Source of the DNA: an uncultured Gilliamella sp. | Lineage (GTDB): Bacteria; Pseudomonadota; Gammaproteobacteria; Enterobacterales; Orbaceae | DNA length: 64,000 nt | Assembly: GCA_946482005.1 (NCBI GenBank) | Contig: CAMLPV010000008.1 | Span: 55,806 to 119,805, forward strand | Reading direction: 5' to 3' | In this document: piece after piece, positions 3,320-63,950 of the stretch | Position numbering within the stretch: position 1 is the stretch's first letter | Layout of the letters: each line of letters begins with the position of its first letter | The notes under the pieces: generated by a model | What the model was told of the DNA's origin: nothing | The model's input: the letters and a program-made list of their open reading frames with translations, nothing else | The model's database searches: none | Program-made: the position numbers and the translations under genes

Positions 3320-3339
3320 TGATATTTAATATGAGTTAT

Positions 3340-3366
3340 GATGGGCTTTTTTAAAGCCCATCTTTA
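3340..3366 (+). terminator. Rho-independent terminator of the RNA-repair operon
   Basis: GATGGGCTTT (3340-3349), a 3-nt loop and AAAGCCCATC (3353-3362), then a short T-rich tail. It lies 20 nt after the HD/kinase stop and between convergent genes. Confidence 0.75.
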
Positions 3367-3377
3367 TGTTCTATTAA

Positions 3378-4781
3378 CTATTTTTTAATGCCATTGTCTT
3401 TGATGACTTGCTGATACCAATAAAAACTATCTTTTTTTATTCGATTAAGGGTTTTTAAGTCATGGTCATCACGATCAACATAAACAAAGCCATAACGCTT
3501 TTTAAAACCTTGATGTGAGCTTAATAAATCAATGACTGACCATGGACAGAATCCAAATAGTTCAACACCATCTTCAATTGCATCATGACAAGCTGAAATA
3601 TGGGATTTGATATAATCGATTCGATAATCATCATGTACTTTATTGTCAGCAGTTAATGTATCGGGAGTACCTAAGCCATTTTCAGTAATAATTAATGGTA
3701 AACGATATTGGCGATAATATTCATTTAGTACAAGGCGTAATCCCATAGGGTCAATTTGCGCACCATAAGTTGAAGCAACTAAATTTGGATTTTTCTCGAT
3801 TTTGAAGTAACCGTAAAGGTCAAAATCGATATCTTTTTCTTTGGTACCAAATGGGTGTGCATCGTCCTCTGGTAAATAACTGGCAACCAAAGTTCGATAA
3901 TAATTTACAGCAATAAAATCAGGTTTTGCTTGTTTTAATATTTCAGCATCTTCAGGATGGGTATTAGGATAGATTCCGCAGCGAGTTAGGTAGCTTTTAT
4001 AATAGTTAGGATAATCACCAAAACAGTACATTTCCAGCGCGTAATTCGTTTTGAAATTATCGTTCATTTTCGCTGCCCATACATCCATTGGTTTGTTACT
4101 TGCAGGATAGGTCATCGTGGATGAAACTGCAGGCCCAACTTTACTGTCGGAAATTAAAGCATGACAATCGTTGGTTGCCATTGCATGGGCAACAAACATA
4201 TGATAATCCATTTGTGCACGAACTTTTTCAATATCCTCAGGTGCAACTTGATACATATTCATTCTTTCATTGACACGAATCATCAGATTTTGTTCATTAT
4301 TAATCTGCCAATGTTTTACCCGATCGCCAAATGCTTTATAACAGACTTGAGCATAACGTCTGAATGCATCAACACAGCGACGATCTTGCCAACCATTATA
4401 TTTATCAACTAAGGCGAATGGTAAGTCAAAATGATAAAGAGTGATAAATGGAATGATATCGTTCTTGATTAATTCATTGATGACTCTGTTGTAGAAATCA
4501 ATGCCAGCTTGATTTATTTCACCATCACCATCGGGAATAATACGAGCCCATGATATAGAAAAGCGATAAGTTTTTAGTCCTAACTCTTTAAATAACGCAA
4601 TATCACTTTCAACATGATGATAAAAATCACTGGCGACTTTACTGTCGGCTTGTATAGCAGAGCGTTGAAATGAATTATAATCGGCAACAGTCATTCCTTT
4701 GCCATCTGCATCCCATCCCCCTTCTATTTGAAAAGCAGACGATGATGCTCCCCACCAAAAATCCTTAGCAAAAGCTTTCAT
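3378..4781 (-). CDS. bglA: 6-phospho-beta-glucosidase, glycoside hydrolase family 1
   Basis: Cytoplasmic enzyme that hydrolyses phosphorylated beta-glucosides delivered by the PTS to glucose 6-phosphate and the aglycone or sugar. The 467-residue protein begins 'FAKDFWWGASSSAFQIEGGW', the GH1 N-terminal signature. The catalytic pair is visible: acid/base glutamate in 'INNEQN' (near residue 163) and nucleophile in 'LIITENGLG' (near residue 368). The late 'FKKRYGFVYVD' segment is the phosphate-binding loop type of 6-phospho-glycosidases. It lies 10 nt downstream of the PTS gene on the same strand, so the pair is an operon. The exact subfamily (BglA, AscB or another) cannot be fixed from sequence alone. 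Confidence 0.92.
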   Translation of the reverse strand: MKAFAKDFWWGASSSAFQIEGGWDADGKGMTVADYNSFQRSAIQADSKVASDFYHHVESDIALFKELGLKTYRFSISWARIIPDGDGEINQAGIDFYNRVINELIKNDIIPFITLYHFDLPFALVDKYNGWQDRRCVDAFRRYAQVCYKAFGDRVKHWQINNEQNLMIRVNERMNMYQVAPEDIEKVRAQMDYHMFVAHAMATNDCHALISDSKVGPAVSSTMTYPASNKPMDVWAAKMNDNFKTNYALEMYCFGDYPNYYKSYLTRCGIYPNTHPEDAEILKQAKPDFIAVNYYRTLVASYLPEDDAHPFGTKEKDIDFDLYGYFKIEKNPNLVASTYGAQIDPMGLRLVLNEYYRQYRLPLIITENGLGTPDTLTADNKVHDDYRIDYIKSHISACHDAIEDGVELFGFCPWSVIDLLSSHQGFKKRYGFVYVDRDDHDLKTLNRIKKDSFYWYQQVIKDNGIKK

Positions 4782-4791
4782 ATCTAAACCT

Positions 4792-6648
4792 CTAAACGTG
4801 AATAACTAATAAATTGTCCGTAACACTCACTTGAGTTTGTTGACAATATTCTATATTTTTATATTGTTCGGAATTAACCACAATAATTGATGTGGTTAAA
4901 TCAAATTGTTGTTGTATTTTATCAATATCAAATGAAACTAATTTGGTACCTTTAGTAATATGTTGACCAGCATGGACATAAGATTGGAAGTATTGACCTT
5001 GTAGATTAACTGTATCAATACCGATATGAATTAACAGTTCAATACCATTATCTAATTTTAGCCCCATTGCATGTAAAGTAGGGTAGAGTGCCGTAACGGT
5101 ACAATCTTCAGGGGCAACGATTTCACCCACTTTAGGATAAACTGCGATTCCTTTTCCCATTGCACCTGAGGCGAATGCTTCATCTTTGACTTGATCTAAA
5201 GCAATCACCTCACCAGCAACCGGCGACAAAATAGCAGTATCTGAAGTTAATTGTGTACTGGACGTTGTTGGCATTGTTTTTGGCGCTTCTTCATTTGGTA
5301 TATCATTAAATCCAACAATCATCGTCATAATGCATGAACCAAAAAAGGCAAAACCTATGCCAATTAAATAACATAAGAATGCTTTTGTACCTGCTTCTGT
5401 GTACACCGGTATTGTTAATACTCCTTGGTTAGCAAATGCGTTACCATAGGAACCTCCCCAACCCATTAAGCCCCCTGCGATTGCGCCACAAATGACGGCG
5501 CAGATCATCGGCCTTTTTAATCTTAAATTGGCACCATAAATTGCTGGCTCAGTAATGCCAAACAGGGCTGTGACCGTTGCCGATGCTGCGACTGTTTTAA
5601 GATTTTTATTTTTGGTTTTGAAAAATACGCCAAACGCTGCACCAGCTTGGGCAAAATTAGCCGCACCAGCAAATGCCAAAAGATTTTGTCTGCCTGTTTG
5701 CGCTACATCATTGATGCCAATTGGCACAATTGCGCGGTGAGCACCAAATATAACTAAAATACACCATACACCACCAATAAAAGCACCTAATAAGATAGGA
5801 CTGACTCCCATGATAAAGTAATAGACCCAGTTTATAAATTCGCCGATATAGATACCAATTGGCCCGAAAATAAATAATGTGGCGGGGATCATGATGAGTA
5901 GTGAAAATGTAGGCACCATGATAATTTTTAATACTTCAGGAATGATTTTTTCTAAAAATCTTTGTATATAACTTAAAATAAAAACGGCAATAATGATGGG
6001 AATAACACTTGATGTATAATTGGCTTTGGTCAATTCAATCGCAAAAAAGGTGACTTCACTTTTACTTGTCATTAAACTCACAACGGAGGGATAACATAAA
6101 GTTGCACCAATAATCATTGAGATAAATTCATGTGCTTTAAATACTTTGGCTGCGGTATAGCCTAAAATGATAGGCATAAAGTAAAACACCGCATCCGATG
6201 CGGCATATAAAATAATATAAGTATTATAATTTTTAATATCCGTTGAGTAGTATTTACCAATTATAAACGCAATTGCTAAGATCCCTTTTAGCATACCGGA
6301 TGCGGCTATCGCTGGAATAATCGGGGTAAAAATAGCAGCAAAATTATTGAGTATTTTAATGCCTATTGAAACTTTTGGTTGTTCTTGTTTTATTGAGTTT
6401 ATTTCACCAATAAGTGGTAAAAGTGCGTCATAAATTTTTGTGACTTTATTACCCAATACTACCTGATATTGCCCACTGCTTTCTACAACAGAAATGACCC
6501 CCTCAGTTTGTAATAATTTTTCACGATTAGCTTTGTTATTATCTTTTAGTTGGAACCGTAATCGAGTAAAGCAATGGTTTACACTGATAATATTTTGCTT
6601 ATTTCCGACCAATTGTAATATTTGCTGTGCAATTTTCTCATAGTCCAT
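4792..6648 (-). CDS. bglF: PTS beta-glucoside-specific enzyme IIBCA
   Basis: Inner-membrane sugar permease-kinase that imports and phosphorylates beta-glucosides. Domain order is EIIB (residues 1-85, phosphorylated cysteine in 'VNHCFTRLRFQ'), EIIC (about 100-450, roughly ten hydrophobic segments, 'GAHRAIVPIG', 'GITEPAIYG'), then EIIA (about 475-618, 'LLIHIGIDTVNL' with the active histidine). About 618 residues, a normal length. I take the ATG at 6648 as start because GGAG lies 7 nt upstream; the ATG at 6660 overlaps that same site. No BglG/LicT antiterminator gene lies nearby, although the leader looks like an attenuator. Confidence 0.93.
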   Translation of the reverse strand: MDYEKIAQQILQLVGNKQNIISVNHCFTRLRFQLKDNNKANREKLLQTEGVISVVESSGQYQVVLGNKVTKIYDALLPLIGEINSIKQEQPKVSIGIKILNNFAAIFTPIIPAIAASGMLKGILAIAFIIGKYYSTDIKNYNTYIILYAASDAVFYFMPIILGYTAAKVFKAHEFISMIIGATLCYPSVVSLMTSKSEVTFFAIELTKANYTSSVIPIIIAVFILSYIQRFLEKIIPEVLKIIMVPTFSLLIMIPATLFIFGPIGIYIGEFINWVYYFIMGVSPILLGAFIGGVWCILVIFGAHRAIVPIGINDVAQTGRQNLLAFAGAANFAQAGAAFGVFFKTKNKNLKTVAASATVTALFGITEPAIYGANLRLKRPMICAVICGAIAGGLMGWGGSYGNAFANQGVLTIPVYTEAGTKAFLCYLIGIGFAFFGSCIMTMIVGFNDIPNEEAPKTMPTTSSTQLTSDTAILSPVAGEVIALDQVKDEAFASGAMGKGIAVYPKVGEIVAPEDCTVTALYPTLHAMGLKLDNGIELLIHIGIDTVNLQGQYFQSYVHAGQHITKGTKLVSFDIDKIQQQFDLTTSIIVVNSEQYKNIEYCQQTQVSVTDNLLVIHV

Positions 6649-6686
6649 TATTTTCTCCATTACGTTAACAGTGGTTAATTTTCGGT

Positions 6687-6755
6687 AAAAAAAAGATCAA
6701 ACATACTAGAGTTGTTGTTAATACTAAAACAACAATACATCATGTATATTTGATC
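6687..6755 (-). promoter_or_regulatory. Attenuator-like inverted repeat in the bglF leader
   Basis: On the minus strand GATCAAATATAC (6755-6744) pairs with GTATGTTTGATC (6706-6695) with one G-T pair, and is followed at once by eight T. Nested inside are AACAACAA and TTGTTGTT (6728-6735 and 6712-6719) around an 8-nt loop. This is terminator architecture between the likely promoter and the gene. The 12-bp arm is also followed by T8 on the plus strand after 4 nt, so it may stop transcription both ways. I see no clear RAT antiterminator sequence. Confidence 0.5.
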
Positions 6756-6913
6756 GTATTTTTTTTGTGATAACACTTTTTTTACCATTGGGTTAACTTT
6801 TCTCAAGCTAACACAGTTTAAAAAGTTAAACAAGATTGATTTGAATTGTTGCTAAATATTTTATTTAGATATATTTTTAACCTTAAGGATTGTAAGGATT
6901 AAAATTATAATTA
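6756..6913. promoter_or_regulatory. Divergent intergenic region between bglF and the MFS gene
   Basis: Beyond the attenuator this AT-rich stretch holds TGTGATAACACT near 6766-6777, a partial CRP-like or small-regulator palindrome, and two GTTAAC/GGTTAA motifs. It probably carries both promoters, but I cannot place -35/-10 boxes with confidence. An AAGGA-like ribosome binding site sits about 16 nt before the MFS start. Confidence 0.3.
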
Positions 6914-8074
6914 ATGAAAACAGCGAAAAAAAAATCGTATTTATTACTTTGTATTGTGTTTTTCTTTTGGTATGCACAATACGTTTATATCCCTTATCAA
7001 ACACCTTATCTTGCAGCCATAAATCTTTCAACTAATTTTATTGGTATGGTTGTGAGTGCTTATGGTATTTCACAATTACTGTTACGTTTACCTGTTGGTT
7101 TAATTGCCAATGTGAAAGAAAAGCATAAAGTATTTATAGTGTTGGGATCTTTTTTAGCTGGTTTCGCATCTGTTATTCGCATAATCCAACCTGATGGATG
7201 GGGATTTTTTATTGGTAATATTATTTCGGGTATTGCGAGTTCAACATGGATCTCATTTATGGTGTTATTTTTAGGTTTTTATCCTAAATCCAAAAAAAGT
7301 TATGCAACAAGTCTTATTATTATGGTAAATAATATAGGCGTATTTTTAGCATTTTTATCCAGTACGTTACTCTTTGAATCTTTTGGAATGAGTTTTATTT
7401 GTCTTTTAAGTTGCTTAAGTGGATTTATCGCTTTTATTTTGGCGATTAGGCTTAAATATCCTGAAAGAATTCATCATCAGTTTAGCTTTCAAAACTTATT
7501 TAAGGTTTTTTTAGATCCCAAATTGCTTTCTTTTTCTCTGTTGGCCTTAATTCAGCAGGGCATACAAATGTCCACTACCATGTCTTTTACCAACCAAATA
7601 CTCAGTGAACTTGGTGCCAATTCTGCTTTAATTGGTCTATCTTCAATTGTATATATGCTGTCATCTGTATTGTTTGCAAAAGTTGGAGCAAGTAGCTGGA
7701 TAACCAAATTAAGCACCTCATCTTGGATCATCCTCTCTTTTCTTATGCTTGCCCTTTATTGTGTTTTAATACCACAATTATCATCAAGTTATCTCATATT
7801 ACTGTTGCAAATTATTCCAGGGATGGGGACTGGTATACTATTTTCACTATTAACTTTTGAAGCGATTTCAGATATTCCTTCTTATGCTCGTTCAACAGCG
7901 ATGGGTCTTTTTCAAGCTATTTATGCATTAGGTATGACAGTTTTTCCAATCATTGTCGGTTATGTTAGTCTGCTATATTCAATGACGACGGCATATTTTT
8001 GTTTAGCGATTATAGCGGTTTTGGGGGCAATTTTTTATTGCTTTTATTGCTCAAACAGAACAATAAAATCATAG
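6914..8074 (+). CDS. Major facilitator superfamily transporter
   Basis: A 386-residue inner-membrane carrier with about twelve hydrophobic segments starting at residue 9. The usual MFS loop after helix 2 is present in altered form ('LRLPVGLIANVKEKHKV', normally GxLaDrxGrr), and 'NIISGIASSTWISF' occupies the helix 4 position. It is transcribed away from the beta-glucoside operon from a shared intergenic region. The substrate is unknown; sugar or drug export are both possible. Nothing in the sequence ties it firmly to the PTS operon beyond position. Confidence 0.8.
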   Translation: MKTAKKKSYLLLCIVFFFWYAQYVYIPYQTPYLAAINLSTNFIGMVVSAYGISQLLLRLPVGLIANVKEKHKVFIVLGSFLAGFASVIRIIQPDGWGFFIGNIISGIASSTWISFMVLFLGFYPKSKKSYATSLIIMVNNIGVFLAFLSSTLLFESFGMSFICLLSCLSGFIAFILAIRLKYPERIHHQFSFQNLFKVFLDPKLLSFSLLALIQQGIQMSTTMSFTNQILSELGANSALIGLSSIVYMLSSVLFAKVGASSWITKLSTSSWIILSFLMLALYCVLIPQLSSSYLILLLQIIPGMGTGILFSLLTFEAISDIPSYARSTAMGLFQAIYALGMTVFPIIVGYVSLLYSMTTAYFCLAIIAVLGAIFYCFYCSNRTIKS

Positions 8075-8177
8075 TGATAATAAATATCTTTTAATAGCCA
8101 TATTATGTTTTTCAAAATGGAAAATTGAATGCTATGAATTAGTCAAATACTTAGCTCTAAACATAAAGAACATTCAA

Positions 8178-9065
8178 TTAATATTGTGCTAAAAACCAAG
8201 TAATCGCAATTAAATCGGCTGTACCACCCGGACTTAGATTGCGTTTTATAAATTCTTCATCTAACTGATTTAACCGTTCAAGACCATTAGTATCAGTCAT
8301 TCCACCTTGTTCAATGAGTTTTCTCGCTTCCTGTTGAGCAAAAGTTAATCCGTCTAAGCCACCTCTAGATACTAAATTAGTATCTTGATTATAGGCAAGT
8401 AAATGTAGCATTGCTTGCAGTAAACATGTTTCTTCGTTATAGCCATTATGTTTCATTGCTCGATAAATAGGCAGTGAGATAGTGCGAACCGTTGCATAGC
8501 CTGATTCTGCTTCACCTCTGGCTCCGGGCAAATTGTGAAGTTTAAAAAGTTTTTCACCTATTGAACGGGTTGAATTATTTTGCTTAAGTTCATTGGTAAC
8601 GATTCCTTGGCAAATAGCAGAAACTTGATCACAAATATTTTGTGTATTAATTGTTAAGCCTAGTTGTTCTAATTTGCCGATTGCACCTAGCAGCAGTCCA
8701 AAAGCAAAAATACCGCCTTTGTGAGTATTGACTTGATTTGTCGCTTGGTACATTGCTTGCTCGCACTCAATACCAATCGGTCTAATGCCTGCTAAAAATT
8801 GTTGGTTATCTTGCAAAGCCGATGCTTTACCATATTGATAAAAACGTTCGAACCAGACACTGATTGCTTTGATACTTTGAACAAAAGTTTGGAAATCCAT
8901 ATCACGATGTGCACCGCTATTATTCATATCAACCAATCCAGGTTTCGGCGATAAACAGACCTCTTTTATTAATGCTTTTGTCGCTAATTGTGCGGGTATA
9001 CATTGATTATTATCACTGTTAAGTTCAAGTTCTAATAGTGCTATTTGCTGAGAATAATCACTCAT
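8178..9065 (-). CDS. citG: Triphosphoribosyl-dephospho-CoA synthase (CitG/MdcB family)
   Basis: Makes 2'-(5''-triphosphoribosyl)-3'-dephospho-CoA, precursor of the prosthetic group of citrate lyase or malonate decarboxylase acyl-carrier subunits. The family signature 'CLSPKPGLVDMNNSGAHRDM' is near residue 38, followed by 'THKGGIFAFGLLLG' and 'GARGEAESGY'; the end 'NLSPGGTADLIA' is also typical. About 295 residues. ATG at 9065 is preferred, although TTG at 9071 sits at better spacing from AGG. No citrate lyase or malonate decarboxylase genes are in the window, so it stands alone here. Confidence 0.88.
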   Translation of the reverse strand: MSDYSQQIALLELELNSDNNQCIPAQLATKALIKEVCLSPKPGLVDMNNSGAHRDMDFQTFVQSIKAISVWFERFYQYGKASALQDNQQFLAGIRPIGIECEQAMYQATNQVNTHKGGIFAFGLLLGAIGKLEQLGLTINTQNICDQVSAICQGIVTNELKQNNSTRSIGEKLFKLHNLPGARGEAESGYATVRTISLPIYRAMKHNGYNEETCLLQAMLHLLAYNQDTNLVSRGGLDGLTFAQQEARKLIEQGGMTDTNGLERLNQLDEEFIKRNLSPGGTADLIAITWFLAQY

Positions 9066-9128
9066 TATCAATTATTACCTATAGGCAATGATGTAAAATC
9101 ATTTGTTTGTGATGTAATGTTTGGATAT

Positions 9129-9157
9129 CGCCAACTCATTGAACAAAATGGTTGGCG
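9129..9157. other. Inverted repeat between ftsK and citG
   Basis: CGCCAAC (9129-9135) and GTTGGCG (9151-9157) enclose 15 nt and are followed on the plus strand by a T-rich run. No plus-strand gene ends here, and the minus-strand side lacks a T tract. It may weakly separate ftsK from citG. Confidence 0.35.
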
Positions 9158-9176
9158 TACTTTTTATTTATTAAAA

Positions 9177-12164
9177 TCAATAATTATTGTGGGATGGTGC
9201 TGCAAGTACTTCACGATTCCCATTATGGGCAGGAGGACTAATAATGCCTTCCGCTTCCATTTGTTCAACAATTCGGGCTGCTCTATTATAACCAATACGG
9301 AATTTTCGTTGTACGCTCGATATTGATGCTCTTTGTGTTTCAACGACAAAATCCACCACTTGGTCAAATAGTGGATCGAGTTCTTCCTGAAACATATCCG
9401 AACTACCATTTTCACCGTCATCGGTCGCTACGGTCACATTTTCAATATATTTTGGTGTACCGCGCGCTTTCCAATCTTGCACCACAGCGTGTACTTCTTC
9501 ATCACGGACAAATGCACCGTGAACACGAATTGGAATAGAACTATTCGGCGCTAAATAAAGCATATCACCCATACCAAGCAATGATTCCGCTCCCATCTGA
9601 TCTAAAATGGTGCGCGAATCAATTTTACTTGATACAGTAAAAGCAATACGGGTAGGAATGTTAGCTTTAATTAAACCCGTAATCACATCTACCGATGGTC
9701 GCTGGGTGGCTAATACCAAGTGGATACCTGCAGCTCTTGCTTTTTGTGCTAATCTAGCGATTAACTCTTCCACTTTTTTTCCAACCGCCATAATAAGATC
9801 AGCAAATTCATCGACCATAACGACAATGTAAGGCAGTTTTTCCAGCATTGGTCTGTCTAGATCCATACTGTCAGTGGGTTTCCAAAGTGGATCTGGGATT
9901 GGTTTACCCATATTTTCTGCTTCTTTAATTTTATCATTATAGCCTGCAATATTGCGTACACCAAACGCTGACATAAGGCGATAACGGCGTTCCATTTCAT
10001 TGACACACCAATTAAGTGCATTAGCTGCATCTTTCATATCAGTAACAACTTGGGTTAATAGATGTGGAATACCTTCATAAATGGATAACTCAAGCATTTT
10101 TGGATCTATCATGATAAATCTTACATCTTCAGGTTTTGATTTATATAAAATACTTAAGATCATCGCATTAACACCAACCGATTTACCTGACCCCGTAGTA
10201 CCTGCAACAAGTAGATGAGGCATTTTAGCTAAATCAGCAACCACAGATTGCCCAGAGATATCTTTACCAAGAACAACGGTAAGTGGTGATTGTGCATTTC
10301 TAAATTGAGGGCTATCAAGCACATCTCTAAAATAGACTGTTTGGCGATTTTTATTAGGTAACTCAATTCCCACATAAGGTTTACCCGGAATCACTTCCAC
10401 CACACGTACAGATGGCATGGATAATGAGCGAGCTAAATCGCGATCTAATGTTGAAATGCGTGCAGCTTTGATACCTGGTGCAAGTTCAATTTCAAAGCGA
10501 GTAATAACAGGTCCCGGTAAATAGTCAACGACTCTTGCTTTCACACGATAATCAGATAAACTTTTTTCTAAAAGATTGGCTGTTGCATTTAACGCTGAAT
10601 GATCAATTTCTATTCGCGTAGTAGGCGGTGCCGTCAGCAAATTTAACGATGGTAAAGGAGTTGTTGGTTTTGGCAAAGGTTTATCATTACGTCTTAATAA
10701 AGGATGAATTAAGCCATCTTCTTCGCTTTCTTCTTCAGTATTTTCATCGTTATCTTCATTAACCTGAACTTCACTTACCGGCTCTGCTTCAACAGCAAAA
10801 GTAGGAGATTGCGGTATTTCTTCAATCTGGTCAATCTCTTCTTCATTTAGATAGATATCATCAATAACAGGATTCGCTTTTTTTAGCGATTCAATATCGA
10901 CATCATAAGGTTGTTCTCTTTCAATGATTTTTTCTTTAAGTTCTTCATGCTCATTTTGATCATTAATTGTTGTTGAAAGATTAACTTTTGGTGGTGTTAT
11001 TTCACTGATAGGCTCAAACGGTGTTAACTCAACTTCTTGGGTTTGCTCTATTTTAGGCGCTTGATAGCCTGATGTGAATAAAGGTTTGCTCGGTGCATCA
11101 GAAATTGTATATTTATTTTCTTCCAAAGCTTGTACTTCTTCAGATTTATCTGATTGCATGTCAGATGATGTTTTTCGCTCATTCATATTTTTTATGATTA
11201 CTTCCATACGAGCTAAAATATCATTAGAGTCAGCCTCTTTTTTAGACTCATCACGAGTTACTTGATTGGTTGAATTGACTTGATCTGTCGTTGTTTTTTC
11301 AAGTTCTTGTAATAATTGTTCAGCCGTTTTGATGAGTTTCTCATCATCTTTAAGGTTGTTGGATTCGGCACGTTGTTCAGCTTTATCTGTATTGATATCA
11401 TGCTGTATTTTTTCTTCACTTGCTATGATTGATGTTGATTGAGCGGTATCTGTATTTACCGTCTCGTTATCAATAGGCATAGTTAATTTTGGTTCTTGTT
11501 CTTTGCCAACAACGGATGACGCTTTATCAGATTGTTGGTTGGTATTTATTATTTGGTTGGTTTTACGTGATAAAATTAACTTTGAGAATGGCGTAATGAG
11601 CCACATAACCAAAGCACCTAATTTTTCCATTAAGTAAAACCAAGATAATCCAGTTAATAAAGTGATGCAGGCAAGACTGGTAATTAATAATGCCAATGAA
11701 GTGGTTAGGGCATTCATTACCGGTAAAAGACTTTCAATTACAATTGCACCTAAATATCCTCCAGCATTGAATTGTTCTGCATCACGAATATTTAAAGCAA
11801 AGAAACCTGTGCTGCTGAAAATAAACGCTAAAATACCAATAATGCGAAATGACAAACTAAAGTAATTGATAGGAGCATTGGGGTTACGATAATAGTAGAC
11901 CACCATTTGTGAGCTAAAGAATATCGAGATAAAAGGGATACAAAAAGCAATAAAACCTAGGAATTGGAATAAAATATCTGAAACATAGGCGCCAATGATA
12001 CCACAATAATTACTGATTGGATTGTGCCATGCAGTACGAGACCATCCAGGATCAGATGGATTATAAGAATATAAGGATAAAAATAGACCAACAGATAATC
12101 CTATAATTGCCAGTAAAATGAATTGAGTGATTATCTGTTTTCTTGTTGTTTTTGACTTTTTCAA
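9177..12164 (-). CDS. ftsK: DNA translocase FtsK
   Basis: Septal ATPase that pumps DNA at the closing division site and activates XerCD recombination at dif. The 995-residue protein has four N-terminal membrane segments (residues about 15-185), an acidic low-complexity linker (about 205-490) rich in Glu, Ser and Thr, then the motor: '[16 protein letters not shown]' Walker A near residue 655, '[12 protein letters not shown]' Walker B, '[12 protein letters not shown]'. The C-terminal gamma winged helix is '[20 protein letters not shown]', which reads KOPS. The start is TTG at 12164, 7 nt after AGG, giving 'MKKSKTTRK'. The linker is shorter than in E. coli FtsK (1329 residues). Confidence 0.97.
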
Positions 12165-55665: not shown

Positions 55666-56238
55666 TTAAATAACTTCTAAAAATTGGCTTGGCACATTAT
55701 TCGTTAACCAAACCCCATTATCGGCTAAATAAAACTTAAAACCTTGTTGAAACATTGCTAATGCTTTAATTCTTAAAACAATTGGTTTTCCATGACGTTT
55801 ACCAACGGCTATAGCTGTTTTTTCATCAATTGAAATATGAACATAATGGCGTTCCCCTGCAATCAAACCTTGTTGAAAAATTGAATCAAGAAAATGGGTT
55901 GCTGTACCATGATACAAATATTCAGGCGGAGTTTTCTCATTATACGCTATATTAACTTGCTTAGTTGAATGCCCTTGTGCTGCACGAATTTTTAAATTAT
56001 CTTCGGACAGAGTAAAGCGTTTTTTATCATTGGTTCTCACGACTTCGGTAATTAAATCTTGAGAAATTTGCATACCATGTTTCTTCGCTTGCCGAATTAA
56101 AACATCTACTCCAACCCAACCATTACTATCTAATGTGATACCTATCGCTTCTGGTTTATGCCTTAAGATATAGCTTAAAAATCTACTAATCTTCTCTAAA
56201 TCTTTACTCGTACATTTAATATTTGATTTTTTACTCAT
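55666..56238 (-). CDS. kptA: RNA 2'-phosphotransferase KptA/Tpt1
   Basis: Transfers an internal RNA 2'-phosphate to NAD+, forming ADP-ribose 1'',2''-cyclic phosphate and nicotinamide. The 190-residue protein has the N-terminal winged helix ('KISRFLSYILRHKPEAIGIT', 'LDSNGWVGVDVLIRQAKKHG') and the ART-like catalytic half with 'PPEYLYHGTATHFLDSIFQQ', 'GERHYVHISIDEKTAIAVGK' and 'GVWLTNNVPSQFLEV'. These contain the Arg-His-Arg-Arg catalytic residues of the family. In fungi it removes the 2'-phosphate left by tRNA ligase; the bacterial role is unclear, but a ligase/HD-kinase pair lies in this window. Confidence 0.93.
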   Translation of the reverse strand: MSKKSNIKCTSKDLEKISRFLSYILRHKPEAIGITLDSNGWVGVDVLIRQAKKHGMQISQDLITEVVRTNDKKRFTLSEDNLKIRAAQGHSTKQVNIAYNEKTPPEYLYHGTATHFLDSIFQQGLIAGERHYVHISIDEKTAIAVGKRHGKPIVLRIKALAMFQQGFKFYLADNGVWLTNNVPSQFLEVI

Positions 56239-58016: not shown

Positions 58017-58166
58017 CTATTTCGTGAATTGGACAATCACCTTAACTTTTTTAGTCGTGACGCTGACAGGCTTACCAGTGGTAAATCTGAGTCCATTGAG
58101 CCAATTGACTTTAATGATAAGTTATGGAGCCTGAACACCTTTATCATAGTTAATGCCTTTATCCAT
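58017..58166 (-). pseudogene. SymE-like toxin relic 2, with internal stop
   Basis: On the minus strand: 'MDKGINYDKGVQAP', stop, 'LIIKVNWLNGLRFTTGKPVS', 'VTTKKVKVIVQFTK', stop. It parallels SymE 'RPQLTIKGFWLEAFGFYAGQ' onward, with the stop (TAA) where Gln is expected. The 96-residue plus-strand ORF at 57930-58220 is mostly the antisense of this relic and is not a gene. Confidence 0.65.
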
Positions 58167-58452: not shown

Positions 58453-58827
58453 ATGAATAAAATAAAATGGATTGTTCAAGTAATAGCTCAGCCTTATGAA
58501 ATTCAGAAAAGTTTGTTTCCTGATTTTGCTAATGTAGCTGATGAACTAGCCGTTGAATGGGAGGGAGCTTTAGATGAGCTAAATATTACCTCTATAACAG
58601 ATGAACAACGAAGTGTAATTAAAAAACTAGATGATTATATGCTGTCTATTAGTGGACCTGCTAATATTCAATACTGGAATAATACTGCACTTTGCAAAAG
58701 TGTAGAATGGCAGAAAATGCGAGAAATGGCTATTGATATTTTATCTATAATGCATTGGGAAAAAATTGTTCCAGCTAAGCCTAAGGCAATCTATATTAAT
58801 CAGGATAATGTAAGCATCATGTCTTAA
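58453..58827 (+). CDS. Candidate immunity protein
   Basis: Unrecognised 124-residue soluble protein, 'MNKIKWIVQVIAQPYEIQKS' at the start, largely helical with 'LDELNITSITDEQRSVIKKL' in the middle. AGGGA lies 8 nt upstream, inside the end of the toxin fragment, so translation is likely coupled to it. A SymE relic on the opposite strand follows 24 nt after its stop. Position and size argue for immunity; nothing else identifies it. Confidence 0.6.
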   Translation: MNKIKWIVQVIAQPYEIQKSLFPDFANVADELAVEWEGALDELNITSITDEQRSVIKKLDDYMLSISGPANIQYWNNTALCKSVEWQKMREMAIDILSIMHWEKIVPAKPKAIYINQDNVSIMS

Positions 58828-58850: not shown

Positions 58851-58955
58851 TTAGATCTGCATAGCAAACCTAATAATTAACTTATCATCCACGATTGTTA
58901 TGATTACTGGCATGAATTTTAGCTCTTCTAGTCAATATTCTTTAATGAGACATTT
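58851..58955 (-). pseudogene. SymE-like toxin relic 3, truncated with internal stop
   Basis: Minus strand: 'KCLIKEY', TGA, 'LEELKFMPVIITIVDDKLII', 'RFAMQI', stop at 58851. Compare the intact 'QLTIKGFWLEAFGFYAGQAV' and 'ERNKLIIELAMQL'. The TGA replaces the conserved Trp (TGG). The N-terminal half is missing because a toxin fragment begins 5 nt away at 58960. Confidence 0.75.
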
Positions 58956-58959
58956 TTGA

Positions 58960-59280
58960 TCACAACAATATTCAAGTAATTGGGCTACAGCAAGTCTTGA
59001 TAAGGTTATTAATGAGTTTGCAGTCTCAAATCCAATAATAACTACAACTGAAAAAGGAAAAAGAATTTATACTAATCCAACAACAAGTATACAGGTGGTT
59101 GAGGATTTGTCTGGAAACTACTTCCGAATTTATAACCCTAATATTTCGGGAAAAAGAGCTTATCTGGATTTGAATGGTAATATTCCTAACAACAAATTAT
59201 TAGAAAATGGAAAAGAAGCTGGCCGAAGTCAAGGTGAATATAATGCGGTAACTCATTTTAATATAAAAAGGAATAAATAG
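58960..59280 (+). pseudogene. Toxin C-terminal fragment (Rhs-CT type)
   Basis: An open frame of 106 codons with no plausible start: 'NWATASLDKVINEFAVSNPI', 'ITTTEKGKRIYTNPTTSIQV', 'VEDLSGNYFRIYNPNISGKR', 'AYLDLNGNIPNNK', 'GRSQGEYNAVTHFNIKRNK'. The ORF track shows only its last 61 residues. The 'GNYFRIY...YLDLNGN.P' pattern is of the kind seen in nuclease tips of polymorphic toxins (BECR-fold-like), an impression and not a search result. The stop is 1 nt before the immunity gene. It lacks the delivery part, so it is a displaced tip. Confidence 0.65.
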
Positions 59281-59281
59281 T

Positions 59282-59614
59282 ATGAAATATATATCCGTTC
59301 CAGTAAATAAAAGTGCAATGGAGCGCCTAGATTTAGATAATTGTGTTGATGGTGATTTGATTGAATTAATTCTTGATGAAGATAATTATACAAATCTTTT
59401 AAAGAGTAATGTTATTAATCAACTTAATAATGAATTAGATATAAACATTGATGATTATGAAGATGAAAAGATAATCGATCTTGATAAGCTTATAAAGGCT
59501 AAAAGTATTATTCAAAATTCAATAGTATCCAATAATAGCGAAATGTTGATTCAATTATTAACTCAAGTTGATAATGCAATAAAGTATAAAACAGGGCTAT
59601 TTTTTTATTTTTAA
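59282..59614 (+). CDS. Candidate immunity protein for the adjacent toxin tip
   Basis: An acidic, soluble 110-residue protein: 'MKYISVPVNKSAMERLDLDN', 'DINIDDYEDEKIIDLDKLIK'. Start lies 1 nt after the toxin fragment stop, the usual toxin-immunity junction; acidity suits neutralising a basic nuclease. A terminator follows. Its last 20 codons and terminator are repeated at 60091, so this unit was duplicated in the past. Confidence 0.7.
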   Translation: MKYISVPVNKSAMERLDLDNCVDGDLIELILDEDNYTNLLKSNVINQLNNELDINIDDYEDEKIIDLDKLIKAKSIIQNSIVSNNSEMLIQLLTQVDNAIKYKTGLFFYF

Positions 59615-59684: not shown

Positions 59685-60071
59685 TTGATAACTAACAGCA
59701 TTTGCTGCTCCTCAAATAAAAAATGCCAGATATTTAATATAGATCATTTAGATTCAAATATTTATGGTCGAGTAATTTTTAATGGTAGCGTTTTTTTAGA
59801 ACTGGAAGAAGAGAATATCCTACCATTTATCATTGGATGTGATGATTTGGTGGGTGGTTATGAAGGTATAACCAAAATAAATCACCAAAAAGAATCAGAA
59901 GTAGCAATGAAGAATAAAGTTCTAGACATTAGTAGGTTTAATAATATTGAGTCACCAATATGGGATTTTGACTTTTTAATGGAGTATCTTCCTAGTTGTG
60001 ATGGCTATAGAGAAGCGATAAAAAATTATCCTCCGACTAACAACTCATCAGAGATAGAGTTAAATGAATAA
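59685..60071 (+). pseudogene. Immunity-type or toxin fragment lacking its start
   Basis: The 128-codon frame begins at TTG with no ribosome site and its first residues are unusual ('ITNSICCSSNKKCQIFNIDH'), then normal-looking protein follows: 'IYGRVIFNGSVFLELEEENI' and 'IWDFDFLMEYLPSCDGYREA'. It lies between the two copies of a direct repeat, so it was probably cut by the duplication event. No family recognised. I treat it as a remnant; use of an unusual start cannot be ruled out. Confidence 0.5.
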
Positions 60072-60090: not shown

Positions 60091-60212
60091 TTGATTCAAT
60101 TATTAACTCAAGTTGATAATGCAATAAAGGATAAAACAGGGTTATTTTTGAATTTAAATGTAATAGTAAGATCCTTATCAAAAAACTTTGAGGATCTTAT
60201 TTTGACATCTAT
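60091..60212 (+). repeat. Direct repeat, copy 2
   Basis: About 120 nt matching 59546-59670 at 80-90% by eye: TTGATTCAATTATTAACTC, GCAATAAAGGATAAAACAGG, then AGTAAGATCCT...AGGATCTTATTTTGA. Here the piece is not attached to an immunity gene. Confidence 0.85.
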
Positions 60213-60235
60213 AGATAAATTTAAGGAGCATCCTA

Positions 60236-60718
60236 ATGCTGAATAATATTATAAATAAGCTTCCTGATGGAAGAGCTGAAAATGAGTTAGCTCATTATTT
60301 AAGAAAACTACCTGAGCATGAAAGTTCAGCTTTGATGGAAATTTTGCTAAAACATAATTCTGATGTAGTTAGAGAATCCTCACTAAGATTGATCCCGCGT
60401 GTTATTAGGGATCGTAGTGTGTTGATAAAGTTTTTAGACATGGGATTAGAAAAAAAAAATGTCTCTGGGGCTAAGCCTTGGATTAAAGCGACGGTATCTG
60501 GATTAGGTTATAAAAAATTACTTCAGCACATTAAAAAAGTAGCTGAAACAAACCCTGACTGGATACTACATGCTTGGTATCAATTAGTTCCTCTTGTAAT
60601 AAAGGAAGCTCCCGAAAAAATTCAGTATTTGCAGGAGATAGAAAAAATTATTGATGCTCATTTATGTAATGAACTAAAAGGCTCATGGTTAAGAACCAAG
60701 GAAGCTGTACCTATCTAA
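60236..60718 (+). CDS. HEAT-like helical protein, candidate immunity protein
   Basis: An unrecognised 160-residue all-helical protein with a good ribosome site (AAGGAG). Alternating short helices such as 'LAHYLRKLPEHESSALMEIL', 'NSDVVRESSLRLIPRVIRDR' suggest two or three HEAT-type repeats, which occur among immunity proteins. It has no toxin directly upstream: the repeat copy 2 lies there, so it is an orphan. A terminator follows. Confidence 0.65.
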   Translation: MLNNIINKLPDGRAENELAHYLRKLPEHESSALMEILLKHNSDVVRESSLRLIPRVIRDRSVLIKFLDMGLEKKNVSGAKPWIKATVSGLGYKKLLQHIKKVAETNPDWILHAWYQLVPLVIKEAPEKIQYLQEIEKIIDAHLCNELKGSWLRTKEAVPI

Positions 60719-60728
60719 TTAGACTTAT

Positions 60729-60760
60729 TATCCTCACCTAATCGGTGTGGATTTTGTTTT
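60729..60760 (+). terminator. Terminator and SymE-tail-like spacer
   Basis: ATCC-t-CACC-TAATC-GGTG-t-GGAT then TTTGTTTTA. The same spacer, ending GTTTTA(g/c)CTyTTAryTC as if entering a SymE 3' end, follows the immunity gene at 61936. A SymE stop (TTA) appears to survive at 60766. Confidence 0.6.
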
Positions 60761-60772
60761 AGCTTTTAACTC

Positions 60773-60853
60773 GATGATTGGGAATTAAAGTTAGCACCAC
60801 CTAAAAAACTAGGTGATCTTCCTGTTGTAATTCACGCTCGGCTAGTTAAATAA
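60773..60853 (+). pseudogene. Toxin C-terminal fragment
   Basis: Twenty-six codons in frame without a start: 'DDWELKLAPPKKLGDLPVVI' then 'HARLVK' and TAA at 60851. It ends 13 nt before the next ribosome-bound gene. Very short, so identification as a toxin tip rests on position. Confidence 0.45.
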
Positions 60854-60866
60854 AAGGGGGGTGTTA

Positions 60867-61256
60867 ATGAGTATTAATTTAAATGATCCTATCAAAATAT
60901 TTTTTGATGAGATAGAGATAGATAATTATTTACCATCAATTAAATTTAAAATTGATATTAATATGAAACAGTTTACTCATCATTTAGCATACAGTGGTGA
61001 AATTTGGATTGATTGTAATGTTTGGGATCTTTTCTCTAAAGGACTTAATAAGAGAGAAAGCGCAGTGTTACATGATATGAATGATGTTTTTATTATAAAA
61101 ATAATAAAAAAACATGAGTTTATAGAGTTTGCATGGTCAGTTAAGAGACAAGATCCAGAAGGAAACGTTATGACGGCTACCTATAGTAGTAAGATTACTG
61201 ATGATGTTTATTCATTAATCAGAAATGAATTTACTAATTATCCTAAATGGTGGTAG
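60867..61256 (+). CDS. Candidate immunity protein
   Basis: Unrecognised 129-residue soluble protein, 'MSINLNDPIKIFFDEIEIDN' at the start, beta-rich with 'YSGEIWIDCNVWDLFSKGLN' and 'HEFIEFAWSVKRQDPEGNVM'. ATG 60867 follows GGGGGG at 7 nt; the GTG at 60861 is too close. It stands between two toxin fragments, as expected of an immunity gene, and has a hairpin after it. Confidence 0.62.
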   Translation: MSINLNDPIKIFFDEIEIDNYLPSIKFKIDINMKQFTHHLAYSGEIWIDCNVWDLFSKGLNKRESAVLHDMNDVFIIKIIKKHEFIEFAWSVKRQDPEGNVMTATYSSKITDDVYSLIRNEFTNYPKWW

Positions 61257-61289: not shown

Positions 61290-61291
61290 TA

Positions 61292-61518
61292 TATGGTTCA
61301 AATAATTCAATCTGGTATGAGACTAAATCAGGACGCTATTGGCAAGATCATGCTCAGGCAGGTAGTAAAGGATTTAAGAAATTTAAATCCGATGTGGATC
61401 TCATGCGAGTATTGCCAAGTAAAATGGTGCGTCTTTTGAAGTGCATTCTAACACACCTATCCCTCAGCATGTTAAAGACTGGTTAACATCAAAGAACATA
61501 CCGTTTAAGGAATATTAA
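61292..61518 (+). pseudogene. Toxin C-terminal fragment, frameshifted
   Basis: Frame 1 gives 'YGSNNSIWYETKSGRYWQDH', 'AQAGSKGFKKFKSDVDLMRV', 'LPSKM'; the next frame continues 'GASFEVHSNTPIPQHVKDWL' and 'TSKNIPFKEY' with a stop at 61516-61518. Together they read as a nuclease-type toxin tip ('ETKSGRYW' and 'SNTPIPQHVKDWL' are toxin-like to my eye). The shift lies near 61424. The immunity gene starts 1 nt after the stop. Confidence 0.62.
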
Positions 61519-61519
61519 T

Positions 61520-61936
61520 ATGGGAATGCAAGTCAGCATAGATATAAATTTTGCACAAGAATATTCTCCTAAAGAGATATTAAAGTGCCTAATAAATAAT
61601 GGCGGGAATATTTATTATCAAAATATGGTCACTTATCTATCGTCAAATGATATCGATGATTATAACTGGTTAAATATCGACATGAATTTGTTCAATTTAG
61701 ACGAGTTTATAAACTCTCATAATATTATGGATAAAATCGGTATAGTGATGGTTTATGATAATGAATCAGGGGGTAATTTATTAATTTACCCTAACTATTT
61801 ATCTATGTCATTGTCAATAAATCGTCAGTATTTATCTGGGGAAGAGATTCCAGATTTTAATTGGTATCTAAAAAAAATGAGTGTGTTTTTAAGAAATATA
61901 AAACTATCTAGCATACAATGTGAAACCATCTACTAA
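61520..61936 (+). CDS. Candidate immunity protein for the adjacent tip
   Basis: Unrecognised 138-residue soluble protein, 'MGMQVSIDINFAQEYSPKEI' at the start, beta-alpha with 'IGIVMVYDNESGGNLLIYPN'. AAGGA lies 8 nt upstream inside the toxin relic; the start is 1 nt after the toxin stop. Although its toxin is frameshifted, this gene is intact, so immunity is retained. The conserved terminator/SymE-tail spacer follows. Confidence 0.68.
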   Translation: MGMQVSIDINFAQEYSPKEILKCLINNGGNIYYQNMVTYLSSNDIDDYNWLNIDMNLFNLDEFINSHNIMDKIGIVMVYDNESGGNLLIYPNYLSMSLSINRQYLSGEEIPDFNWYLKKMSVFLRNIKLSSIQCETIY

Positions 61937-61942
61937 TGAATA

Positions 61943-61975
61943 ATCCCCACCTAACCCGGTGGGGGATCTTGTTTT
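61943..61975 (+). terminator. Conserved terminator after the immunity gene
   Basis: CCCCACC-TAACCC-GGTGGGG then GATCTTGTTTTA. The sequence resembles 60729-60760 and leads into a SymE 3' end. Confidence 0.7.
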
Positions 61976-61980
61976 ACCTC

Positions 61981-62091
61981 TTAGCTCAGTCCCTCAATCC
62001 TAATAATCAACTGCTCCTGTTGCGCATCGATGATGACTGGCTGACCGGTAGTAAAGTCGAAAACTTCCAGCCAGCGGCTTTTAATGGTCAT
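61981..62091 (-). pseudogene. SymE-like toxin relic 4, C-terminal half only
   Basis: Minus strand from 62091: 'MTIKSRWLEVFDFTTGQPVI', 'IDAQQEQLIIRIEGLS', stop. All 36 residues align with 'LTIKGFWLEAFGFYAGQAVV' onward in the intact copy. The N-terminal half is missing; Rhs core sequence begins here on the other strand. The first part of the 219-residue plus ORF at 61936 is the antisense of this relic. Confidence 0.85.
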
Positions 62092-62922
62092 AATGGCCGG
62101 GAACGAGGGGGTGAGATTTACTACTACTTCAATGACCAACTGGGGACACCGCAGGAGTTAGTGACGACTCAGGGGGAGATTGTATGGAGTGCTGTGTATA
62201 AATCTTATGGTAACTCAGCAATTGATTATCAAACGGTACCCCAACCGCTGCGACTATCGGGACAATATTTTGATGAAGAATCGAGGTTACATTATAATCG
62301 ACACCGTTACTATGACCCGCACTGTGGGCGTTACATTAGTCAAGACCCGATTGGTTTAGCGGGGGATGAAAATGCCTATAGTTACGTGGCTAATCCAATC
62401 TCTCGGATAGATCCTTTAGGGTTAAATGAAGTCTGTCCGGGAACGGAAGCTGGAAAGGGGACTACAGGTGCGACACAAGCGGGAAGAGAAGCGATTGGAG
62501 TGCCTGCAACTCAATCTAAAAATCCGTTAAATCCAGTACAGCAATATGATGTTCACGGAAATGAGATTGTTTATCGGACTATGTCTCCTGAGTAATTTAA
62601 GCAATTTGAAAGAACAGGTATTATGCCAGCAACCACAGAAACCTCAGTTTCGCTAGTTCTAAGCTATTTGTCAAAATATGATGGTATAACAGTAAAAATT
62701 ACAGTTAAACCTGGTACATTCTCCGAGCTTGAAAAAATAGGGATTGCAGTGAATGAAGCAGAAGCAAAACAACTGCCGAGTATGTCAACTCAAACAGGAA
62801 AATGAATGGATACCAATATCCGTTTTAAAGTTTAAGGTGAGCAAATGACGACCCAAGTTGGGCAAGGTAAAGGAATGGAAATTCTTAATAATAATATTGT
62901 CTATTTTGAAAAAGTGCAATAA
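62092..62922 (+). pseudogene. Rhs core C-terminus with nonsense-riddled toxin tip
   Basis: One frame runs from the Rhs core ('GGEIYYYFNDQLGTPQELVT', 'SGQYFDEESRLHYNRHRYYD', 'GRYISQDPIGLAGDENAYSY', 'VANPISRIDPLGL') into a variable tip ('EVCPGTEAGKGTTGATQAGR', 'GNEIVYRTMSPE') and on past three stops: TAA 62593, TGA 62803, TAA 62833, to 62922 ('GKGMEILNNNIVYFEKVQ'). The YRTMS...TTETS pattern is reminiscent of ART-like toxins; that is inference. Rhs cores encapsulate the tip; the N-terminal cage and secretion part are absent. The ATG at 61936 is not its start. Confidence 0.85.
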
Positions 62923-62934
62923 AAGGAAAGAATT

Positions 62935-63417
62935 ATGCTATTAAAGTTAGAAAATACAAAAGTGCCTATGAAATTGGTATATCTTCTTTCTGAAGAGTTA
63001 CAAGCTAATCCAGAAAAGATCACTTTAACTCAAGCTCTCACACTGGATCATTCAAGACCTAATATGGGTCTTAAAGGTACTAATGGTCTTTTTGGCTCCC
63101 AAGAATGGTGGAATAGTATTGAGCAAAATAAAATGCCTTTACTATTTATTTCAGGAATTATAATTAGAACCTATGTCGCCGGACAAGATCCATCATTGAT
63201 AGATAACAGCTTCAGTTTATTATTAGATGATGGATCAGTATGTGAAGAAGGTATTTATAATTATATAAAAGAAGATGATAAAAAGCTTTTTAGAGTCGGA
63301 TCCAAAGTTAATATTATTTATGCTCGTGATGAGTTGAAAAGAAGTGGGGCTAATGGAGAAAAGATCTATTTAGATATAGTGCTAGAAATGGCAGTTTCAT
63401 TAGCACCTGTTGAATAA
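62935..63417 (+). CDS. Candidate immunity protein for the Rhs tip, intact
   Basis: A 160-residue soluble protein, 'MLLKLENTKVPMKLVYLLSE' at the start, 'LFGSQEWWNSIEQNKMPLLF' in the middle, mixed alpha/beta. AAGGA 9 nt upstream. It begins 13 nt after the end of the broken toxin and keeps a full reading frame, so the cell probably stays protected after losing the toxin. No family match recognised. Confidence 0.7.
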   Translation: MLLKLENTKVPMKLVYLLSEELQANPEKITLTQALTLDHSRPNMGLKGTNGLFGSQEWWNSIEQNKMPLLFISGIIIRTYVAGQDPSLIDNSFSLLLDDGSVCEEGIYNYIKEDDKKLFRVGSKVNIIYARDELKRSGANGEKIYLDIVLEMAVSLAPVE

Positions 63418-63460: not shown

Positions 63461-63697
63461 TTAGAGCTGCATCGCAAGTTCAATAATTAACTTGTTGCGC
63501 TCAATTTTTACCACGACAGCTTGCCCGGCATAAAAGCCGAAGGCTTCCAGCCAGAATCCTTTAATGGTCAGTTGTGGTCTGGGGTTGGGTTGCCCGCCAT
63601 TAGTGCTGTAATCGACCGTTAAGCTGCGCTTTGGACGTGGTTTTATCGTTCTGGTTTTAGTAATGGTAGTTTTTAGCGTAGAATATGCCTTAGTCAT
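63461..63697 (-). CDS. SymE-like toxin (type I family), intact
   Basis: A 78-residue protein aligned with E. coli SymE over the core: 'RSLTVDYSTNGG' (SymE 'RQLTVSYAS'), 'RPQLTIKGFWLEAFGFYAGQ' (SymE 'IPAITLKGQWLEAAGFATG') and 'VKIERNKLIIELAMQL'. The family has an AbrB-like fold; E. coli SymE is SOS-induced and inhibits growth, held by antisense RNA SymR. Here it sits opposite and after an immunity gene. The basic N-terminus ('TKTRTIKPRPKRS') fits nucleic acid binding. No SymR is identifiable. Confidence 0.85.
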   Translation of the reverse strand: MTKAYSTLKTTITKTRTIKPRPKRSLTVDYSTNGGQPNPRPQLTIKGFWLEAFGFYAGQAVVVKIERNKLIIELAMQL

Positions 63698-63788: not shown

Positions 63789-63950
63789 ATGTGGTCGTAT
63801 TACGCAGGAGCATCAAAAGTTTATCAATTAAAAGGAAGCCTGAATGGTGTTTCTGGTAAATTTGAATGGGTAGATCCTAATTTAGGAGGTTTAAGCCATC
63901 GTATGTTTTTACCAAATGGAACAATTAATGGAATCCCATCTAAGTCATGA
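63789..63950 (+). pseudogene. Toxin C-terminal fragment
   Basis: A 53-codon frame, 'MWSYYAGASKVYQLKGSLNG', 'VSGKFEWVDPNLGGLSHRMF', 'LPNGTINGIPSKS' and TGA. It lacks a ribosome site and resembles the ends of polymorphic toxin tips ('GKFEWVD...SHRMFLPNG'). It is not in the ORF track. The stop overlaps the next start (ATGA). Confidence 0.6.

What the first reader, a model, noticed from the sequence alone, without database searches (positions are those of the whole stretch)
62092..63417. Rhs tip with three point nonsense codons but an intact immunity gene
The toxin frame stays in register for about 830 nt from the Rhs core to its natural end, broken only by TAA, TGA and TAA. No indel is needed to restore it. 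The immunity gene directly after it is complete. Toxin loss with immunity kept is expected if neighbours still deliver the same toxin.
Basis: partly seen in the sequence, partly recalled or inferred. Interest (0 to 1): 0.6.

Follow-up and report, generated by a model that had tools for sequence, protein, structure and literature searches.

The report
Dead orphan Rhs toxin, intact immunity gene
In a Gilliamella (bee-gut type) bacterium, a leftover copy of an antibacterial toxin tip of the RhsP2 type has been killed by three stop codons while the antidote gene behind it is whole; this is one clear case in a run of such antidote-only leftovers, a pattern already described for this bacterial genus.

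Summary
The frame from the Rhs core through the tip (62092-62922) stays in register and is interrupted only by TAA 62593, TGA 62803 and TAA 62833; a complete 160-aa gene follows (62935-63417). The tip is identifiable: the window's own fragment and intact relatives match RhsP2, an antibacterial RNA ADP-ribosyltransferase (PDB 7RT7_A), and the downstream protein matches its immunity protein RhsI2 (7RT7_D). The third stop falls on the column of the catalytic glutamate. The gene was already a displaced orphan: only about the last 110 residues of Rhs core remain, behind a terminator and a symE-like remnant. In relatives the pair is intact in G. intestini and at the tip of a 1765-aa CdiA in another genus of the family. 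In Gilliamella Choc5-1, Pas-s25 and one unnamed species (deletions), and on a Cronobacter plasmid (frameshift), the tip is otherwise broken and immunity complete; a Psychrobacter plasmid has immunity alone. The window cassette is one of about nine in an immunity-rich array. So 'toxin lost, immunity kept' is supported; delivery of this toxin by neighbours is untested. The phenomenon is published for bee-gut Snodgrassella and Gilliamella (PMC5727410, PMC8125069). Ordinary in kind, well resolved in detail.

The parts
61944..61965 (+). terminator-like hairpin after the preceding immunity gene, upstream of the orphan tip
61996..62091 (-). remnant of a symE-like gene (antisense), joined to the Rhs core fragment
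   Evidence: tblastn E=1e-5 to the window's own SymE-like protein
62092..62430 (+). last ~110 aa of Rhs core, ending in the DPLGL motif
   Evidence: NCBIfam RHS_core and Rhs_assc_core, Pfam RHS
62494..62919 (+). RhsP2-type ADP-ribosyltransferase tip, 142 codons, pseudogene
62593..62595 (+). nonsense codon 1 (TAA), just after the conserved YRTMS segment that holds the catalytic Arg
62803..62805 (+). nonsense codon 2 (TGA), at a column invariant in G008, G039 and RhsP2
62833..62835 (+). nonsense codon 3 (TAA), at the column of the catalytic Glu of RhsP2
   Evidence: with PMC12340436
62935..63417 (+). RhsI2-type immunity gene, 160 aa, complete
   Evidence: 7RT7_D E=1.1e-38 with the family profile
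63461..63697 (-). SymE-like protein gene, 78 aa
   Evidence: NF010128 E=3.3e-8, below its curated cut-off
63791..63949 (+). C-terminal stub of the next toxin tip; its immunity gene starts at 63949 and runs off the contig
   Evidence: 94% DNA identity to G018 cassette L016:10095-10275
61291..61936 (+). preceding cassette: frameshifted toxin stub (to about 61511) and intact immunity gene 61520-61936; relatives in G029 keep a longer toxin
60750..61256 (+). cassette: ~30-aa toxin stub and intact immunity gene 60861-61256; in G001 the same end follows a long open toxin gene
60200..60718 (+). cassette: toxin reduced to a few residues, intact immunity gene 60236-60718
59685..60071 (+). truncated immunity gene: only the C-terminal half of a ~230-aa family is left
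58957..59614 (+). cassette with open toxin-like domain (58960-59278, no Rhs core or start) and ORF 59282-59614
   Evidence: sequence
58453..58827 (+). immunity-like gene; relatives follow long open CdiA-like genes in G001 and G016

Best explanation
This is a displaced (orphan) Rhs C-terminal cassette: the end of an Rhs core, an RhsP2-type RNA ADP-ribosyltransferase tip and its RhsI2-type immunity gene. It lost its delivery part by C-terminal displacement or cassette recombination, and the tip has been inactivated by three point nonsense mutations. The immunity gene is still intact. Most likely it is kept (or was until recently) because it blocks the same toxin when Rhs- or CdiA-armed relatives deliver it, and because losing an idle toxin costs nothing. 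Shown: homologies, order, stops, catalytic column hit, recurrence in relatives. Inferred: expression, protection, and the selective reason.
For: Tip = RhsP2; immunity = RhsI2. R and Y of the R-Y-E triad are present but the Glu column is a stop (residues from PMC12340436). Only an Rhs core fragment is left, behind a terminator and a symE remnant. Of 12 Rhs-core matches in this genome none lies in a frame longer than 284 aa. Intact tip plus immunity exist in G. intestini (two orphan tip copies) and at the tip of a 1765-aa CdiA in G039. Tip broken but immunity complete, by other lesions, in G016/G019, G018 and Cronobacter pCCO1; immunity without any tip on Psychrobacter pA46P5. Immunity looks constrained between two lineages whose tips are dead: window-G019 pN/pS 0.20, bootstrap 0.14-0.28. 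The window tip changed at 8 of 46 deeply invariant columns, against 3/41 and 2/40 in intact tips (P=0.066). Own genome has T6SS genes. Literature: same outcome in S. alvi and Gilliamella; an orphan Rhs immunity protein proven protective in Serratia.
Against: The statistical asymmetry within this one cassette is weak: the chance that three random stops all land in the tip rather than the immunity gene is about 0.075. The tip still looks mostly constrained (pN/pS 0.33 against 0.27 between intact tips), so death is recent and the immunity gene has had little time to decay. Most of the window-G019 divergence may predate toxin loss. In G009 and G027 the tip is wrecked and no immunity gene is found, and a neighbouring immunity gene (59685) is truncated, so immunity genes also decay. 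No expression data; the genome is a draft, 81% complete.
Confidence: 0.85

Rival explanations
1. Both genes are drifting neutrally; the immunity gene is intact only because toxin death is recent and the 3' gene has not yet been hit.
For: Tip constraint is nearly normal apart from the stops; P=0.075 for the stop distribution; a neighbouring immunity gene is truncated and two species with wrecked tips lack the gene.
Against: Immunity is complete behind differently broken tips in G016, G019, G018 and Cronobacter, and alone in Psychrobacter; complete immunity ORFs outnumber working toxins in this array; low pN/pS among immunity genes.
Confidence: 0.2
2. The stops are sequencing or assembly errors near a contig end and the tip is in fact intact.
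For: The window end is a contig end about 1.2 kb from the last stop, in repetitive Rhs sequence; no reads could be checked.
Against: Three substitution-type nonsense changes with no indel, plus six other changes at deeply conserved columns, in one gene; flanking genes are clean; relatives lost the same toxin by other lesions.
Confidence: 0.05
3. The orphan tip is a stored cassette kept as raw material for recombination back onto a full-length Rhs or CdiA.
For: Orphan tips can be re-recruited (Koskiniemi 2014, cited); the same tip is found on Rhs and CdiA chassis.
Against: The stops hit the toxin itself, including the catalytic Glu column, so re-recruitment would give a dead toxin.
Confidence: 0.05

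Closest known systems
RhsP2-RhsI2 of Pseudomonas aeruginosa (PDB 7RT7; PMC12340436)
   Same: tip domain and immunity protein are homologous over nearly their whole length and in the same order; the R-Y-E triad and the RNA-binding Lys are conserved in the intact relatives
   Different: the window copy has no delivery part, only an Rhs core end, and three stops including one at the catalytic Glu column
Orphan Rhs toxin domains and orphaned immunity genes of bee-gut bacteria (Steele 2017 PMC5727410; Steele and Moran 2021 PMC8125069)
   Same: same genus; arrays of displaced tips with immunity genes; toxins pseudogenised by multiple nonsense mutations (S. alvi rhs3); 'other Gilliamella spp. [quoted passage not shown]
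   Different: the papers do not, in the passages read here, single out the RhsP2/RhsI2 pair
Immunity gene arrays by sequential displacement, Vibrio cholerae (Kirchberger 2017, PMC5361080)
   Same: effectors displaced and lost, immunity genes retained in a row
   Different: there attached to T6SS clusters; here the T6SS genes found lie on another contig and no full-length Rhs was found in the draft
Serratia marcescens 2280Db10 orphan Rhs immunity protein (PMC10539506)
   Same: stand-alone Rhs immunity gene next to other Rhs genes; shown to protect against a delivered NAD+-using toxin
   Different: its toxin is a TNT-like NADase, not an RNA-modifying ART; no decayed tip is reported beside it in the passages read

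Membership tests
RhsP2-type ADP-ribosyltransferase toxin | sequence homology to the RhsP2 toxin domain | tested here: met
   window fragment E=4.8e-9; family profile E=1.3e-27
RhsP2-type ADP-ribosyltransferase toxin | R-Y-E catalytic triad in an open frame | tested here: not met
   R and Y columns kept, Glu column is a stop, two more stops; all three present in G008 and G039
RhsP2-type ADP-ribosyltransferase toxin | ADP-ribosylates 2'-OH of structured RNA | not testable with these tools
   needs an assay on the intact relatives
RhsI2-type immunity protein | homology to RhsI2 over its length, complete ORF | tested here: met
RhsI2-type immunity protein | gene directly downstream of the RhsP2-type tip | tested here: met
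   12-nt gap in the window; same order in G008, G016, G018, G019, G039 and Cronobacter
RhsI2-type immunity protein | protects against the toxin | not testable with these tools
   co-expression assay needed
Orphan rhs-CT/immunity cassette (C-terminal displacement) | Rhs core end and tip without N-terminal part and most of the core | tested here: met
Orphan rhs-CT/immunity cassette (C-terminal displacement) | lies downstream of a full-length rhs gene | tested here: inconclusive
   no full-length rhs found, but the genome is an incomplete draft and the array is cut by a contig end
Orphan immunity gene array | several consecutive immunity genes without working cognate toxin | tested here: met
   57.5-64 kb
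Acquired interbacterial defence (AID) cluster | immunity genes carried on a mobile element with recombinase | not tested
   no recombinase search was made; the array sits at the same chromosomal site as in G018

The most novel reading that the evidence does not exclude
RhsI2-type immunity genes form a stand-alone, horizontally spread defence against RNA-ADP-ribosylating Rhs/CdiA toxins, kept by selection in Orbaceae, Cronobacter and Psychrobacter after the toxin has been lost several times independently.
Probability: 0.4. Interest if true: 0.45.

Novelty: new member of a known kind. Interest (0 to 1): 0.3.

Why it matters
It gives a well-resolved example, with a known toxin mechanism and a solved toxin-immunity complex, of a weapon lost and its antidote kept. 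Intact natural partners exist in G. intestini and in a CdiA of a related genus, so the question whether an orphan immunity gene still protects could be tested directly in E. coli. It also shows one RNA-modifying toxin type on both Rhs and CdiA delivery proteins in one bacterial family.

Tried and rejected
AlphaFold model of the immunity protein: pLDDT 54, not used. Relative-rate test of tip against immunity change: no significant difference. Viral contigs: no relative of the immunity protein. Rfam: nothing in 55-64 kb. Promoter scan: no more sites than in shuffles, so expression cannot be argued from it. Pfam and NCBIfam give no name to the tip or to the immunity protein; only the PDB sequence search did. 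Recoding of the stops was rejected: neighbouring genes read normally by the standard code and both TAA and TGA occur. A link between the nearby KptA gene and RhsP2 damage was considered but not supported; KptA occurs in 16 of 35 genomes of the genus, with and without the tip.

Full report
OBSERVATION. The reported frame is real. Read from 62092, the sequence encodes the end of an Rhs core (NCBIfam RHS_core 1.2e-30, Rhs_assc_core 2.8e-25) to DPLGL, a linker, and a 142-codon tip ending at a natural TAA at 62920. Three stops interrupt it: TAA 62593, TGA 62803, TAA 62833. An independent six-frame search of 35 genomes of the genus reports the same '1 TGA, 2 TAA'. Against the intact tip of G039 the 142 codons align gap-free. 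Other frames of the stretch hold 6 to 17 stops. The immunity ORF 62935-63417 is complete and starts 12 nt after the natural end, with a Shine-Dalgarno-like sequence.

WHAT IT IS. No Pfam or NCBIfam model names the tip or the immunity protein. A sequence search of the PDB does: the tip family matches RhsP2 (7RT7_A, 1.3e-27; 2.1e-28; the window piece alone 4.8e-9) and the immunity family matches RhsI2 in the same crystal (7RT7_D, 1.1e-38). RhsP2 is an antibacterial ADP-ribosyltransferase that modifies 2'-OH groups of structured RNA, with the triad R1490, Y1524, E1576 and RNA-binding K1574 (PMC12340436). In the alignment the window keeps the R, Y and K columns; the third stop occupies the E column. 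The intact relatives in G008 and G039 have all four.

AN ORPHAN, NOT A WEAPON. Only about 110 residues of Rhs core remain. Upstream come a terminator-like hairpin (61944-61965) and an antisense symE-like remnant (61996-62091). The whole stretch 57.5-64 kb is an array of about nine cassettes on one strand. At 58453, 60236, 60861, 61520 and 62935 a complete immunity-like gene follows a toxin that is reduced to a C-terminal stub, frameshifted, point-mutated or not recognisable. At 58960-59278 a toxin-like domain is still open, but without Rhs core or start. At 59685 the immunity gene itself is truncated. The last cassette is cut by the contig end, which is also the window end. In relatives, ends homologous to some of these stubs belong to long open genes (G001, G029 and others). 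The genome has T6SS genes (tssB and hcp on contig C12) but no long Rhs frame among 12 core matches; it is 81% complete, so a full-length gene may be missing.

RELATIVES. Pair intact: G. intestini, two orphan tip copies, the second immunity gene running into masked sequence; and G039, another genus of the family, where the tip ends a 1765-aa CdiA-type protein with a TPS domain. Tip broken, immunity complete: the window; G016 and G019 (N-terminal part with the catalytic Arg deleted, apparently the same junction in both); G018 (67 residues left); Cronobacter condimenti plasmid pCCO1 (frameshift). Immunity only: Psychrobacter plasmid pA46P5. Tip wrecked and no immunity gene found: G009, G027. G007 has a distant open tip (39%) followed by a gene that the immunity profile does not recognise.

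SELECTION. Immunity genes show pN/pS 0.20 (bootstrap 0.14-0.28) between the window and G019 and 0.25 between G016 and G018, lineages whose tips are dead. The window tip has pN/pS 0.33 to G039 against 0.27 between the intact G008 and G039, so its death is recent. Of columns invariant in the other three sequences it changed 8 of 46, against 3 of 41 and 2 of 40 in intact tips; pooled Fisher P=0.066. Given three stops in tip plus immunity, all falling in the tip has a chance of about 0.075. Each test is weak alone. The repeated pattern across loci with different lesions is the stronger argument, with the caveat that C-terminal displacement removes 5' parts and so spares immunity genes mechanically.

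KNOWN OR NEW. Steele et al. 2017 (PMC5727410) found in S. alvi a toxin 'pseudogenized by multiple nonsense mutations', immunity genes without toxin but never the reverse, and also nonsense mutations in immunity genes that had lost their toxin. Steele and Moran 2021 (PMC8125069) state that Gilliamella species other than G. [quoted passage not shown] Kirchberger 2017 (PMC5361080) gives the displacement model; the Serratia work (PMC10539506) proves protection by an orphan Rhs immunity protein. The finding is therefore a new, well-resolved member of a known kind. What is added is the identity of the pair, its Rhs and CdiA carriers, and the recurrent loss of the tip.

Noticed in passing
window 55666-56238 (-); L014:15554-16099 (-); G029:C1:1959932-1960432: A KptA/Tpt1-type RNA 2'-phosphotransferase gene lies within a few kb of an orphan toxin/immunity array in at least three Gilliamella genomes. 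It may only mark the chromosomal site.
   Followed up: partly
window 58029-58127, 58854-58946, 61996-62091, 63461-63697 (all -); L016; L019: symE-like genes or their remnants, antisense to the cassettes, recur between cassettes of the arrays (the matches at 58029 and 58854 are weak); they could serve as short homologous stretches for cassette exchange.
   Followed up: partly
L015 (G019) compared with L014 and the window: The G019 tip stub is 98% identical to G008 while its immunity gene is 61% identical to G008 and 77% to the window: tip and immunity allele have different histories.
   Followed up: no
L020 (G000:C1) 3301-6048: Three near-identical tandem copies, period about 971 bp, of a toxin-end ORF and a 108-aa ORF: local amplification of one cassette.
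   Followed up: no
L019 (G000:C2) 717-1067 and 1678-2028: A 116-aa immunity-like ORF is duplicated with the same 60 first and 40 last residues about 960 bp apart, at a contig start.
   Followed up: no
L016 (G018) 6391-9507: Four tandem diverged copies of a 223-241-aa immunity-like gene; the window keeps only half of one (59685-60071).
   Followed up: no
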